This document shows, piece by piece, positions 9,375 to 50,004 of a stretch of 64,000 nt of DNA (the first letter of the stretch is position 1; the number at the start of each line of letters is the position of its first letter). Source of the stretch: Peptococcaceae bacterium (lineage in GTDB: Bacteria; Bacillota; Dehalobacteriia; UBA4068; JAAVYR01); contig JAAVYR010000002.1 of assembly GCA_022791255.1 (NCBI GenBank), positions 1 to 64,000 on the forward strand. The letters run 5' to 3'. A program made the position numbers and the translations under genes. The notes under the pieces are model-generated. The model was not told where the DNA came from and did not search any database. It saw only the letters and a program-made list of their open reading frames with translations.

Positions 9375-9410
9375 AAAAAGGACTTGCATTTTTATTTGCA
9401 AGTCCTTTTT
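9375..9410. terminator. terminator after the Gin-like gene
   Basis: A 14-bp perfect stem with an 8-base T-rich loop and a final T tract. A copy differing at one base out of 36 serves as the typA terminator at 50005-50040. Confidence 0.9.
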
Positions 9411-9464: not shown

Positions 9465-9653
9465 GTCGGGGAAGGCAATCTATATATGCCACTGGGGAGG
9501 TTAGTTTTATTTTCTGCTTTTCCCAGTGAAGAAGTAGGTCAGAGTGCTTTTGCTGATAGTGGCACAATTTAGATTGCGATTTTGGTTCTTTTCTTAAAAG
9601 AACAGGCAAAGCGAGCCAAAGATAAATAATTCGTACTTGCCCAATTGTCAGAG
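9465..9653. repeat. 189-bp dispersed repeat, copy A
   Basis: Matches 49602-49790 over its full 189 bp in the same orientation, at roughly 85-90% identity by eye. Internal structure is conserved. An inverted pair (CAATCTATATATGCCACT at 9476-9493 versus AGTGGCACAATTTAGATTG near 9558-9576) could form a large stem. It is followed by a small palindrome GTTCTTTT-CTT-AAAAGAAC near 9586-9604 and GGCAAAGCGAGCC. No ORF of note. It could be a MITE-like element or a structured RNA. Confidence 0.8.
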
Positions 9654-9666
9654 GTTCTTTGTGGTT

Positions 9667-9700
9667 AAAAAGATCCTTCGCTTTCGCTCAGGATGACAAA
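9667..9700. repeat. short intergenic repeat (ATCCTTCGC...AGGATGACA type)
   Basis: AGATCCTTCG-CTTTCGCTCA-GGATGACA, one member of a family also found near 21252, 31861, 43846, 44608 and 49502-49589 in this window. It resembles REP-like intergenic elements common in gut bacteria. Confidence 0.7.
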
Positions 9701-9833: not shown

Positions 9834-10031
9834 GTGAGTGAATTTATTCCAAAAGAATATAAAAATGAGCAAGTTACCATTCGAGTGAGTAGAGAGCTTA
9901 TTAGAGAGATAGATAAAATTGCTACACGCTTCAATCTGAGTCGTAATAAATTCATCAATCAATGTATTGATTATGCTATGGCGCAATTAATTGAAGAAGC
10001 GACGGAGCAGCGTATGGCATTTAAGGAGTGA
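9834..10031 (+). CDS. ribbon-helix-helix DNA-binding protein
   Basis: A 65-aa protein with the CopG/Arc-like pattern: a short strand (QVTIRVS), a helix (RELIREIDKIATRF), the turn NLSRNKFI, then a second helix ending in an acidic tail. It likely binds DNA as a dimer. The GTG at 9834 is preferred because AGAGGTG lies 6 nt upstream; a GTG at 9825 is also in frame. It overlaps the ribosome binding site of the next gene by translational coupling. It could autoregulate or control the downstream islet. Confidence 0.75.
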   Translation: MSEFIPKEYKNEQVTIRVSRELIREIDKIATRFNLSRNKFINQCIDYAMAQLIEEATEQRMAFKE

Positions 10032-10036
10032 TTTAT

Positions 10037-10246
10037 ATGAATGACCGTGTAACTTGTGAAAATATCCGTTGTATCTTTCAAATAGAGGGCCGCTGCCGGA
10101 GTACAAAAGTCGTTATAACCGATAGGGGCGTCTGTGACAGCTGCTATCTGCTGCCGGTGGATAAGGCTTCCCTGGATAAGGTGAAGAACGAGGTGGATTG
10201 GGAACCGGAGCATCTGGAGTATCGAGTAATAAAAAGGAAGGAATAG
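10037..10246 (+). CDS. small Cys-rich protein of unknown function
   Basis: A 69-aa protein that I do not recognise. It has Cys at TCENIRC, GRC and VCDSC, a spacing able to hold one zinc or Fe-S site, and a charged C-terminus (RVIKRKE). No membrane segment. AAGGAG at 10023-10028 overlaps the end of the ribbon-helix-helix gene, so the two form a coupled two-gene operon. Confidence 0.65.
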   Translation: MNDRVTCENIRCIFQIEGRCRSTKVVITDRGVCDSCYLLPVDKASLDKVKNEVDWEPEHLEYRVIKRKE

Positions 10247-10513: not shown

Positions 10514-12010
10514 ATGCGAGTAAACAATGTAACGGATTGGTGTCGTGCGCTGGACGCCAATGACAGACAATATGGGGTAGCAAATCTAGCGATTTGCGAC
10601 CAGACAGCGCTTTTAGGGTATTTGCAGCGGCATAGTCACTTGCTGCCCCAGTGGGCCGGCGAGGTCTTTGCCAATGTAGAGCGGTATGACCGCTATGACC
10701 AGCTAGGGCTGGTAATGCGGTTTTATCAGTGCAATCCTACTTATTATGTAGACCATGTAGTGGCTAGCGGCGCGCTGGAAGCACCGGCTGCGTTGATTGG
10801 GACCTACCATACCACGGATGAAATCTTAAAACGGCTAAAGGGTGCGCCGCCACCGACAAACTATAGATTTGCGGTAGGGGAGCCGGCTGATGGCAGCTGG
10901 AGCAAGGCCATCGCCATGCTGCGGGAGAAAATTGGGCTTTCTCCTGAGGGCGGCTATGATATGGAAGCGGCAGAGAAGCTGTACCAGTATGGCCGTAACC
11001 GCTGGCGGACCGGCCGGGGCTATCTCTACTCCGACAACAACCCAGAGGTCCTTTTTGACGCGGGGTACAAGGAGTATGTGACGGTGGTCAACAGCGAGGT
11101 ATGGGTGCTTGCTGAGATGGATATTAACTATCTCCATGATAATGAACATGAAATCTGGAATAAAATTATACCAGAGGTATTAGATTTAAATAAGAGATTA
11201 GCCGAAAAAGATGAGTATCAAGGAGACGTTAAGGCAACTCTAAAAAGGATGTTATACGCAAATCCTGAGGCTTTTGAAAAGATAATTAATTCTCCAGACC
11301 CGGAATTAGGCTTGTCTGAAAATAATAAATTTTTCTTAAAAACAATTTCTGATGGTACTCAACGAGCGATATGGGCGGCTGGGGCTGAAGTTGGATATGG
11401 ATTAGGAACAGATTTGACATGGTATTTGTTGACCCATTCTTTAGCCGATAATCCAAATGATGTAATTATTGAAGAAAATGTAAATTATTTCTTTGATGAA
11501 ATTATTGAAAAAATTAAAAATAATGACTATTTTGTGAAAAAAATAAATAAGGCATTAATTAGAAAGAGGGTATCATTTCCTAAAGAGGAGGTAAAGGATT
11601 TTAATTTTAGGTATGCGGGAGATTTTGATTTAAAATCTGCTATTAATAAGTGTGGTCTGTTTGTAGCAGGAGATTTAAACGAAGATGGTACATGGAATCT
11701 AGAAATTGAAATGACTGATACCTATGATTTTACGGAGCATGAAAATATTTTTATTGGTTCTCGTTGGGTTGAAGATGAACAGTCAGGGAAAAAGCATAAG
11801 GAGTGGTATATCAGAAGCAAAGGCGATATGTTCGCTTGGGCTGCTAATAATGCAGCTCATTTTTCCCAAGAAACAGGTGCAATTCATCCATTTGAGCTAA
11901 AGATTTGTTTTACCATGGAGAATTTCGAGGTGAAAAGAGAATGGCTAACTGGGGAAGATTGGGAAAATATCTTAGACGGATTATCTCAACAGTTATCTGG
12001 GGACCAGTAG
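10514..12010 (+). CDS. modular protein, putative polymorphic toxin
   Basis: A 498-aa protein with no recognised domain. It divides sharply by base use. The first ~210 residues are encoded by GC-rich DNA; from about 11150 on the DNA is strongly AT-rich, as if a new C-terminal domain had been joined. The N-terminal part is Trp/Tyr-rich (motifs QYGVANLAI, RFYQCNPTYYVDHV). The middle is helical and charged. The last ~110 residues look beta-rich (GDLNEDGTWNLEIEMTDTYDF) and end in a helix-strand (FAWAANNAAHFSQ). The gene overlaps the next one by 70 bp. That arrangement, with a membrane-anchored partner downstream, is typical of toxin-immunity pairs. No signal peptide, so the export route is unknown. 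ATG 10514 is chosen (AGAGG upstream); a GTG at 10490 is possible. Confidence 0.6.
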   Translation: MRVNNVTDWCRALDANDRQYGVANLAICDQTALLGYLQRHSHLLPQWAGEVFANVERYDRYDQLGLVMRFYQCNPTYYVDHVVASGALEAPAALIGTYHTTDEILKRLKGAPPPTNYRFAVGEPADGSWSKAIAMLREKIGLSPEGGYDMEAAEKLYQYGRNRWRTGRGYLYSDNNPEVLFDAGYKEYVTVVNSEVWVLAEMDINYLHDNEHEIWNKIIPEVLDLNKRLAEKDEYQGDVKATLKRMLYANPEAFEKIINSPDPELGLSENNKFFLKTISDGTQRAIWAAGAEVGYGLGTDLTWYLLTHSLADNPNDVIIEENVNYFFDEIIEKIKNNDYFVKKINKALIRKRVSFPKEEVKDFNFRYAGDFDLKSAINKCGLFVAGDLNEDGTWNLEIEMTDTYDFTEHENIFIGSRWVEDEQSGKKHKEWYIRSKGDMFAWAANNAAHFSQETGAIHPFELKICFTMENFEVKREWLTGEDWENILDGLSQQLSGDQ

Positions 12011-12904: not shown

Positions 12905-13783
12905 TTGGTTAAAATAGTCAACATGGATGAAATTTTACCTGAAGAAGCTACAAAAGCAGAAGTAAGAAGTTGTGTCGGTTGTTTTGGTTGTTTTAGTGGA
13001 TGTTTCATTGCATTTTTAGCATTTCCAGTAATTCTTTTTTATGGATGGTATTGGGCGGTGACTCATCCACCGGAGACAGAAGTTGTTTGGCAGAGTGGTC
13101 CATATTCTTTGCAATATGAACATGATGTTGCTACGACTTGGGGGCATTATCTTTCCTGTAATTTAAATGGAGAGCAGGTAAAAATTCTTCCTCATGTTTA
13201 TAACTATAAAGAAATAGATGATTATGTCTATATTGCCGCTACTGAGGGGTATGGAATTATTGATATCACAGACAATACAGCCGATATTGTCTTGCTTTCA
13301 GATACTATTTCCAAGCGGAACTTTCGAAACATTCGCTATCATGATAGTCTTGAAGTATTTAATTTTGTACATCAAAAGCGCTTAACAGAAATGCGTCATA
13401 TCTTATTGGCTTATGAGATATGCGTGTGGTCTGATGGTCATGATACGCCTATTGGTGATGGTCGATTTCAGGGATCTTTTTTCAATGATCCATATCTAAT
13501 GGTATATGGATTATATGGGGATTATGAAGTTAGAAACTTTTTATTGCAGGATTTAACTGGTTTTCAAAGAGGTGACAATGGCAAGTATTATGTTACCGCT
13601 CTCCAAGGCTACGCCATCGTCGACGGTCCCAGCGGCACCTGCCGCATCTACTTTACTGCCCCAGAGCTAGCAGTAAAGGAATACCAAGAAGACATCTATG
13701 TACTAGATAGCTTTGAAGATTTTACACCAGAGGAACAAGAGATGCTCCGTAAGGTAGAAGTAGAAGAAGAAGGACTAAAATAA
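12905..13783 (+). CDS. membrane-anchored protein, putative orphan immunity protein (paralogue 2)
   Basis: A 292-aa paralogue of the preceding gene, with the same plan: cytoplasmic N-terminus, one membrane segment (about residues 28-48), then an external beta-rich domain with YIAATEGYGIID, GDGRFQ and GYAIVDGPSG. The part before the membrane is Cys-rich (C-x2-C-x2-C-x3-C at about residues 21-31). The last ~55 residues are about 85% identical to paralogue 1, while the rest is much more diverged. TTG at 12905 is chosen because AGGTGA lies 8 nt upstream; ATG 12923 is the alternative. It has no toxin-like gene of its own, as expected for an orphan immunity gene. Confidence 0.6.
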   Translation: MVKIVNMDEILPEEATKAEVRSCVGCFGCFSGCFIAFLAFPVILFYGWYWAVTHPPETEVVWQSGPYSLQYEHDVATTWGHYLSCNLNGEQVKILPHVYNYKEIDDYVYIAATEGYGIIDITDNTADIVLLSDTISKRNFRNIRYHDSLEVFNFVHQKRLTEMRHILLAYEICVWSDGHDTPIGDGRFQGSFFNDPYLMVYGLYGDYEVRNFLLQDLTGFQRGDNGKYYVTALQGYAIVDGPSGTCRIYFTAPELAVKEYQEDIYVLDSFEDFTPEEQEMLRKVEVEEEGLK

Positions 13784-17159: not shown

Positions 17160-17192
17160 TTTTTTTATAAAATAAAAGGAAAATGAAAAGAG

Positions 17193-17245
17193 AAATCGAT
17201 TGTGCGAAAACCAAAATAATTGGTGTAGGGCAATCGATTTTTTTG
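17193..17245 (+). terminator. terminator after the YkgJ-type gene
   Basis: Perfect 10-bp arms AAATCGATTG / CAATCGATTT separated by 28 bases, followed by a T run. Confidence 0.75.
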
Positions 17246-17391
17246 TTTCAGTAAAAAATATATTTACTTTTGTAGTAGTAGTTGTTGTTTCTTTTTCATC
17301 TTCTGGGGATAAAAAATTAATTTTGCCGCATACTAAGTTTGTAAAAAAATGAAAAAATTCTGTCGTAATTAGGAAAAGGAGGCATAAAACT

Positions 17392-48195: not shown

Positions 48196-48462
48196 ATGCA
48201 AGAAGTAGACCAGAACCAAGTGATAGAAAAAATGCAGAGAATTTTGACAGGAAGACTCAATCAGCTTTGCCATAATCAGCATATTAGTTTGCAAGATTTG
48301 TCTCGCAGGTCGGGCGTTTCTCTTTCTACTGTTAGAAAAATATCTCAAGGCAGACATTGTAATGTGGGTATTGCTGTGGTTATCAAGTTGAGCCATGTTT
48401 TCGGAGTCACGCCCAGCCAATTTGTGGACGAAAACCTGTTGCGGGCAGAGGATAAGTTTTAG
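48196..48462 (+). CDS. XRE-family helix-turn-helix regulator
   Basis: 88 aa. The HTH spans about residues 18-72: ISLQDLSRRSGVSLSTVRKI (helices 2-3) and an FGVTPSQFVDEN end typical of XRE proteins. GGAGGTAG precedes the ATG. It heads a run of small genes in the 48-49.5 kb islet. Confidence 0.88.
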   Translation: MQEVDQNQVIEKMQRILTGRLNQLCHNQHISLQDLSRRSGVSLSTVRKISQGRHCNVGIAVVIKLSHVFGVTPSQFVDENLLRAEDKF

Positions 48463-49008: not shown

Positions 49009-49230
49009 GTGCTTAGCTATGGCCCATTGTGGAAAACAATGAAAAATAGAAAAATTACTACATATACCCTCATTTATAAATTGGGTTTTAGTGCAAATAC
49101 GATTACCAGTTTGCGAAGAAATAAATCTATTACTTTATATACGGTAGAGAGGCTATGCAAAATTTTAGATTGTACGCCTAACGATATCGTAGAAATTTTA
49201 CCAGATGAAGATGAAGCAGGGAATGGTTAA
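49009..49230 (+). CDS. Cro/CI-type HTH protein (tandem copy 1)
   Basis: 73 aa. A compact HTH of the YozG/HTH_26 type: LWKTMKNRKITTYTL, GFSANTITSLRRNKSI, then YTVERLCKILDCTPNDIVE, the conserved end of this group. GTG start with a G-rich site upstream. Paralogous to the next gene. Confidence 0.85.
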   Translation: MLSYGPLWKTMKNRKITTYTLIYKLGFSANTITSLRRNKSITLYTVERLCKILDCTPNDIVEILPDEDEAGNG

Positions 49231-49241
49231 AGAGGATTTAT

Positions 49242-49454
49242 ATGATAAGTTATGCCCCATTGTGGCGAACAATGAAGCAAAAAAATATTACAACATATAC
49301 GCTTATTTTTAAAGAGGGTTTTAACTCACATACTATTCACAACCTGAAACATAATCAGTCTATTACTGCTTATACGATGGAACGACTGTGTAAGATATTA
49401 GATTGCACGCCCAATGATATTATTGAGTTTCTGCCAGATGAAGATGAAAAATAA
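49242..49454 (+). CDS. Cro/CI-type HTH protein (tandem copy 2)
   Basis: 70 aa, about 60% identical to the gene before it. It shares LWRTMKQKNITTYTLIF, the second HTH helix with changed recognition residues (NSHTIHNLKHNQSI), and ERLCKILDCTPNDIIEFLPDEDE, of which only the start is quoted as a match. It starts 11 bp after copy 1 in the same operon. The likely DNA-contact residues differ most, which suggests different sites. Confidence 0.85.
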   Translation: MISYAPLWRTMKQKNITTYTLIFKEGFNSHTIHNLKHNQSITAYTMERLCKILDCTPNDIIEFLPDEDEK

Positions 49455-49501: not shown

Positions 49502-49589
49502 AAGGATCCTTCGTCACTATGTTCCTCAGGATGACAATTAGAAGCACTTACTGCCTCTATATGTCATCCTGAGCGAAAGCGAAGGATCT
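49502..49589. repeat. inverted pair of short intergenic repeats
   Basis: AAGGATCCTTCG...CTCAGGATGACA (49502-49533) faces TGTCATCCTGAGCG...GAAGGATC (49562-49588). This is the best-conserved pair of the family in the window, directly before the 189-bp repeat. Confidence 0.7.
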
Positions 49590-49601: not shown

Positions 49602-49790
49602 GTCGGGGAAGGCAATCTATATATGCCACTGGGGATGGTTCGTTTTATTTTCTATTTTTCCCAGTAAAGAAGTACAAAAAAGTGCCTTTCTGATAGTGGC
49701 ACAATTTAGATTGCGATTTTGGTTCTTTTCTTAAAAGAACAAGCAAAGCGAGCCTAAGGTAAATAATTTGCACCTGCCCGGCTGTCAGAG
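49602..49790. repeat. 189-bp dispersed repeat, copy B
   Basis: Same orientation and length as the copy at 9465-9653. Conserved core: GTCGGGGAAGGCAATCTATA at the left end, the TGATAGTGGCACAATTTAGA block in the middle, the AAAAGAAC palindrome and a TGTCAGAG right end. Confidence 0.8.
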
Positions 49791-50004
49791 ATGGATAGTG
49801 ACTTTTTGATAAAATAAATTCTATCTCTTACAGAAGGGCAAGTGCTATGAGTTTCTTTGGGTAAGTCTTTAACTTCTTTTTGAAAAAGAAGCAAAACTGC
49901 CGCCTGGTTGACCAAGTAACAGCCTCGCCACTACTTGCCGTTCCCCGCGTCAAACAGGCGGCGAGTCCCCGATGAATTTTATTATTATTCGGAAAGATTT
50001 AATT
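49791..50004. other. non-coding region between repeat copy B and typA
   Basis: About 210 bp with no gene. It contains CTTCTTTTTGAAAAAGAAG (a 9-bp palindrome at about 49871-49890) and CCGCCTG / CAGGCGG arms about 60 bp apart (49902-49961). It could be an extension of the repeat element. Confidence 0.45.

What the first reader, a model, noticed from the sequence alone, without database searches (positions are those of the whole stretch)
9465..9653. 189-bp structured repeat in two copies, each beside an accessory islet
Copies at 9465-9653 and 49602-49790 have the same length and direction and conserve internal inverted arms (CAATCT...GCCACT versus AGTGGCA...AGATTG) and a palindrome. One borders the toxin-like islet, the other the HTH islet. 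No ORF is inside. It may be a MITE-like element, an insertion hot spot, or a structured RNA.
Basis: seen in the sequence. Interest (0 to 1): 0.6.

Follow-up and report, generated by a model that had tools for sequence, protein, structure and literature searches.

The report
REP-bounded hairpin repeat at regulator islets
The two 189-base copies are arms of a larger, two-hairpin, non-coding repeat known so far only from one genus of uncultured gut Clostridia; it is scattered between genes beside small regulator genes, where short flanking repeats seem to let DNA be gained, lost and rearranged.

Summary
The repeat is real (89% identical), but it is half of something larger. Copy 2 is a complete 369-bp element (49603-49971): a left arm (L) facing an inverted right arm (R). 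Copy 1 is a lone L arm. The genome holds 25 arms at 15 intergenic sites. Each arm folds into two local hairpins, supported by covariation (63 double-changed cells versus 24 in shuffles), and carries one of two interchangeable tips, A or B. Both window L arms carry the rarer tip B. Arms occur in all three held species of the genus and in none of 32 other genomes of the order. No Rfam family, phage, plasmid or Y1 transposase matches.

All 15 sites have a REP-type repeat within 600 bp. Nine of 15 lie within 1 kb of an XRE-HTH gene (about 4% expected; 2 of 30 for element-free REPs). At one site a relative lacks the element and keeps a single REP whose two flanks match the outer flanks of the two REPs bracketing it: gain or loss by REP-REP recombination. 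Both window copies lie where gene order differs between species.

Verdict: a lineage-specific REP/BIME- or MITE-like structured repeat in mosaic islets. How it first spread, and whether it is transcribed, is not shown.

The parts
9466..9653 (+). Copy 1: lone L arm with tip B
   Evidence: 89% identical to copy 2; arm model R1 hit 9466-9612, E 1e-8
9475..9577 (+). Hairpin 1 of copy 1: GCAATCTA (9475-9482)/TAGATTGC (9570-9577), inner TGCCACT (9487-9493)/AGTGGCA (9558-9564)
   Evidence: fold, z -2.9; the outer stem covaries across arms
9585..9603 (+). Hairpin 2 of copy 1: GTTCTTTT-CTT-AAAAGAAC
9672..9698 (+). REP directly after copy 1
   Evidence: pattern hit
9375..9410 (+). Perfect 14-bp inverted repeat AAAAAGGACTTGCA, terminator-like, before copy 1
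9834..10031 (+). RHH (CopG-like) gene, start of the islet beside copy 1
   Evidence: PF01402, E 3.8e-4
49603..49971 (.). Copy 2: complete element, L arm facing an inverted R arm
49603..49791 (+). L arm of copy 2, tip B
49864..49971 (-). R arm hairpins of copy 2, tip A
   Evidence: arm model R1, E 3.1e-26; fold z -4.9
49505..49536 (+). REP left of copy 2
49562..49588 (-). Second REP left of copy 2, inverted to the first
48196..48462 (+). XRE-type HTH gene of the islet beside copy 2
   Evidence: PF13443 and PF01381
48477..48716 (+). Small islet gene, no Pfam match; sits with the same XRE family in G002 and G001
49009..49454 (+). Tandem HTH_26 genes 49009-49230 and 49242-49454; their counterparts in G002 are upstream of another core gene

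Best explanation
A genus-restricted, non-coding, non-autonomous dispersed repeat. Its unit is an arm of about 150-190 nt with two local hairpins; two arms, L and R, usually face each other, and lone arms also occur. It behaves as part of REP-bounded mosaic islets: recombination between REP or arm copies at different places adds, removes and reassorts blocks made of arms, terminator-like hairpins and small XRE/RHH/DUF6809 genes, and sometimes rearranges the flanking chromosome. The hairpins are kept (or were shaped) as single-strand structures, most simply because they form in single-stranded DNA. Shown: copy number, structure and covariation, tip exchange, the association with REPs and XRE genes, one REP-bounded empty site, and changed gene order at several sites. 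Inferred: that REP/arm recombination is the cause, that the structure acts in DNA rather than RNA, and that a lost or unrecognised transposase made the first copies.
For: Twenty-five arms at 15 sites in the own genome: 17 with tip A, 7 with tip B, 1 with the tip deleted. Covariation: 95.5% of cells paired, 63 double-changed cells against 24.1 +/- 3.8 in shuffles; one position is C-G, A-U or U-A. Where both arms are type A, local pairs are kept 23-26 of 26, while arm-to-arm pairing at the same columns is 19-22 of 26. Tips A and B occur on both L and R arms. All 15 sites have a REP within 600 bp (about 4% expected) and 9 of 15 an XRE gene within 1 kb (p 5e-10); element-free REPs 2 of 30 (Fisher p 2e-4). 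Empty site: G000 has REP-element-terminator-REP-spacer-REP and G002 one REP, with flanks matching the two outer ones. Changed neighbours at sites L081, L088, L093 and L094. Two sites share one deletion derivative of the L arm.
Against: Only one clean empty site, and its polarity (gain or loss) is unknown. At three decidable sites gene order is conserved (L084/L095, L085/L105 and the empty site itself), so the elements do not always rearrange. A 20-kb control stretch has about one break of its own in G001, so the breakpoint enrichment is suggestive only. G001 and G002 are fragmented metagenome assemblies, and repeats are where such assemblies break. The covariation rests on few independent changes: L versus R arms and three species. 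The XRE association could be passive, both kinds simply collecting in tolerant islets.
Confidence: 0.6

Rival explanations
1. A classical MITE: an internally deleted transposon spread by a transposase acting in trans on its terminal inverted repeats.
For: Short, non-coding, ends CGGGGA...TCCCCG, arms as long imperfect inverted repeats, long copies 87-100% identical within the genome, dispersed between genes.
Against: No target duplication at the empty site; its junctions are REPs. Lone arms and inside-out L/R arrangements are common. No Y1 transposase in the genus. Other transposase families were not searched.
Confidence: 0.2
2. A REPIN-like element: inverted hairpin units moved as single-stranded DNA by a REP-associated tyrosine transposase (RAYT).
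For: Two hairpin units in inverted orientation, singlets as well as doublets, compensatory changes in stems, as described for REPINs (PMC3116915).
Against: PF01797 (Y1_Tnp) gives no match in any of the three genomes, while the control rings in 10 of 14 reference genomes. Copies are few, and units are several times longer than REPs.
Confidence: 0.07
3. A structured RNA, cis-acting or free-standing, perhaps regulating the neighbouring small regulator genes.
For: Covarying stems, conserved loop sequences (GCGGGGA, GRCGAGGC), positions next to XRE genes.
Against: No fixed position or orientation relative to genes; no Rfam match; tips are exchanged wholesale; hairpin deletions are tolerated; the near-palindromic layout gives similar folds on both strands.
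Confidence: 0.13
4. A DNA site bound or used by the islet proteins: XRE or RHH proteins recognise the arms, or an integron-like enzyme uses the folded hairpins to move gene cassettes.
For: 9 of 15 sites beside XRE genes, and 12 of 15 if RHH and DUF6809 genes are counted; the same XRE families recur at different element sites.
Against: The neighbouring XRE proteins belong to many families with no common partner; some elements have none nearby; G002 has XRE islets without an element (L145, L153). The GTT...AAC arrangement in the tip is the reverse of attC.
Confidence: 0.1

Closest known systems
REP sequences and BIMEs (PMC2817692, PMC3733652)
   Same: Intergenic palindromic units in alternating orientation, mosaic clusters, singlets and doublets; true REPs lie beside every site here.
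   Different: The arm is about 150-190 nt with two hairpins and exchangeable tips; few copies; no RAYT; a GTAG/CGTC tag was not looked for systematically.
REPINs (PMC3116915)
   Same: Two inverted hairpin units with compensatory changes form the usual unit.
   Different: Local hairpins within each arm are the better-kept structure, not one long hairpin; no Y1 transposase.
Bacterial MITEs (e.g. Correia, RUP, Nezha; from general knowledge)
   Same: Short, non-autonomous, inverted-repeat, intergenic.
   Different: REP-bounded junction instead of a target duplication; no parent IS identified.
Integron attC sites (general knowledge)
   Same: Folded imperfect hairpins next to small accessory genes.
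   Different: Single dispersed copies, core triplets in the opposite arrangement; an integrase was not sought.

Membership tests
REP/BIME | Short palindromic intergenic units in mosaic, alternating arrangement | tested here: met
   L, R and REP units in several arrangements at 15 sites, but the arms are much longer than REPs
REP/BIME | High abundance (usually >100 per genome, PMC2817692) | tested here: not met
   25 arms in 1.56 Mb; the flanking REPs have 58 exact pattern matches
REPIN | Cognate RAYT (Y1 transposase) in the genome | tested here: not met
   PF01797: 0 of 3 genomes; genomes 75-97% complete
MITE | Terminal inverted repeats, no coding capacity | tested here: met
   CGGGGA...TCCCCG ends, arms inverted; recurring ORF not conserved as coding
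MITE | Target-site duplication at the insertion | tested here: not met
   One empty site; junctions are REPs. A single case
MITE | Related autonomous transposon | not tested
   Only PF01797 was searched; no match on phages or plasmids
Structured RNA family (Rfam) | Match to a curated covariance model | tested here: not met
   No gathering-level hit and none near threshold
Structured RNA | Discrete transcript | not testable with these tools
   No RNA-seq
Integron attC | RYYYAAC...GTTRRRY core arrangement | tested here: not met
   Tip reads GTTTGNC...GNCAACC, the reverse order

The most novel reading that the evidence does not exclude
The arms are folded-DNA docking or recombination sites of a dedicated cassette-shuffling system: islet-encoded XRE/RHH proteins (or an unknown enzyme) act on the covarying hairpins, with swappable tips setting specificity, so that small regulator cassettes move between fixed chromosomal sites.
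Probability: 0.08. Interest if true: 0.75.

Novelty: new variant of a known kind. Interest (0 to 1): 0.4.

Why it matters
It adds a well-delimited repeat to a lineage seen here only as metagenome assemblies, with two uncommon features: two-hairpin arms whose tips are exchanged as modules, and strong co-location with REPs and small XRE regulator genes. If the REP-recombination reading holds, it gives a transposase-free route by which accessory regulator islets and gene order diverge between species, testable in closed genomes. It also warns annotators that a recurring short ORF in these repeats is not a gene.

Tried and rejected
Chance segmental duplication: rejected by 25 arms at 15 sites. RAYT-driven REPIN: no Y1 transposase in the genus. 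One long cruciform as the conserved fold: local hairpins are kept better than arm-to-arm pairing. Hidden protein on the R strand: changes by codon position 24/39/35, no third-position excess, frames broken. Phage or plasmid origin: no match. Known RNA family: none. blastn over relatives found no other convincing genome (one weak 29-bp hit), and model R1 none in 32 other genomes of the order. Two false arm calls from the loose pattern (C10:108.9k, C23:79.7k) were removed; still counts them in its 17 sites, one search uses 15. A paper search for the REP core sequence found nothing.

Full report
OBSERVATION. The two copies are real: 9466-9653 and 49603-49791, 89% identical, same direction. The reported inverted arms are present and fold better than shuffles. 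In copy 2 the sequence continues through an AT-rich centre into an inverted, related arm and ends TCCCCG at 49971; copy 1 is a lone left arm followed by a REP-type repeat at 9672-9698.

COPY NUMBER AND RANGE. blastn against the own genome (G000, 1.56 Mb, 24 contigs) gave 3 near-full matches and about a dozen partial ones, because most copies carry a different tip. A covariance model built from 34 arms (R1) finds 25 arms at E below 1e-5 in G000, at 15 sites: 17 with tip A, 7 with tip B, 1 with the tip deleted. All three held genomes of the genus have arms; none of 32 others of the order does. No match was found in viral contigs (tip-A pattern), phages or plasmids.

ANATOMY. An arm reads CGGGGA, a stem (GGCAATCT in L, CCGCCT in R), a tip, the closing stem, then a second hairpin (GTTCTTTT/AAAAGAAC or CTTCTTTT/AAAAGAAG) and a tail. 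Tip A is CTGTTTGNCG.GGGGA...GRCGAGGC...GNCAACCAG; tip B is a longer stem with TTTTCCCAGT..GAAGTA in its loop. Tips A and B occur on both L and R arms in several combinations: A/A, B/B, L-B with R-A (copy 2), L-A with R-B. Covariation: 95.5% of cells paired versus 87.0% shuffled, 63 double-changed cells versus 24.1, covariation score 0.238 versus 0.105, and the position next to the tip is C-G, A-U or U-A. These cells are not independent events; they reflect L versus R arms and three species. Where both arms of a site are type A, local pairs are intact in 23-26 of 26 cases and arm-to-arm pairs at the same columns in 19-22, so the two local hairpins are the better-kept structure. A recurring ORF on the R strand shows no third-position excess and is broken by frame shifts.

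SURROUNDINGS. REPs of the form GATCCTTCG...CTCAGGATGACA number 58 exact pattern matches. All 15 element sites have one within 600 bp, about 4% being expected. XRE-type HTH genes lie within 1 kb of 9 of 15 sites, 3.7% expected at random, p 5e-10; element-free REPs are within 1.5 kb of one in 2 of 30, Fisher p 2e-4. RHH or DUF6809 genes flank three further sites. Random positions were drawn from contigs of known length, not from intergenic DNA only, which is why the REP control matters.

HOW IT CHANGES. At G000 C23:63 kb the order is REP - element - terminator - REP - spacer - REP - XRE gene. G002 is colinear there but has a single REP whose left flank matches that of the first G000 REP and whose right flank matches that of the last. 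That is what recombination between the two direct REPs, in either direction, would leave; no other target duplication is seen. Gene order differs at both window copies. In G000 copy 2 lies between carB and typA; in G002 typA is joined through an element and an XRE islet to another gene, carB is beside argH, and the tandem HTH_26 genes are upstream of the gene for a large 2-oxoacid oxidoreductase-like protein (the gene names are my reading of the sequences). At copy 1, G001 has a different islet after the deacetylase-like gene, and the genes on the other side are elsewhere. Sites L081 and L088 are also changed; L084 and L085 are conserved with their elements. A 20-kb control stretch showed about one break, in G001. 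This makes breakpoint enrichment likely but not proven, since the relatives are draft MAGs.

INTERPRETATION. The best reading is a lineage-specific structured repeat that lives in REP-bounded mosaic islets and is gained, lost and reassorted by recombination. The recombination step is inferred from one empty site, from a shared deletion derivative at two sites, from tip exchange and from changed gene order. The first spread may have needed a transposase: the Y1 type is absent, and others were not tested. Whether the fold acts in DNA or RNA is open.

NOVELTY. It works like a REP/BIME or MITE mosaic and fails defining tests of the named families (RAYT, target duplication, Rfam match). REPs, BIMEs and REPINs are described in papers read here. 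I found no published description of this element in two literature searches aimed at such repeats, in a library that lacks most subscription papers. I call it a new variant of a known kind.

Noticed in passing
window 9672-9698, 49505-49536, 49562-49588; L154-L233: The REP pattern GATCCTTCG...CTCAGGATGACA has exact matches in at least 120 stretches of the IMG/VR viral contig collection (scan stopped at its limit), so this short palindrome is very widespread, unlike the element.
   Followed up: no
window 10037-10246; L086 6088-6321: Two small cysteine-rich islet proteins that look similar by eye sit next to element sites; the window one has no Pfam match.
   Followed up: no
window 10514-12010 and 12923-13783: Large islet ORFs beside copy 1 with no Pfam match.
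   Followed up: no
L083, L084, L092, L095, L097, L147: A DUF6809-family protein recurs next to element sites in two species.
   Followed up: partly
L007, L012, L015: Arms with the tip or both hairpins deleted between short repeats; L012 and L015 share the same deletion, which looks copied between sites.
   Followed up: partly
window about 17160-17390: Gene order appears to break here in G001 with no element nearby.
   Followed up: no
L143 4691-6199: G001 carries a second CTP-synthase-like gene (53% identical to the window one) close to the site-1 region.
   Followed up: no
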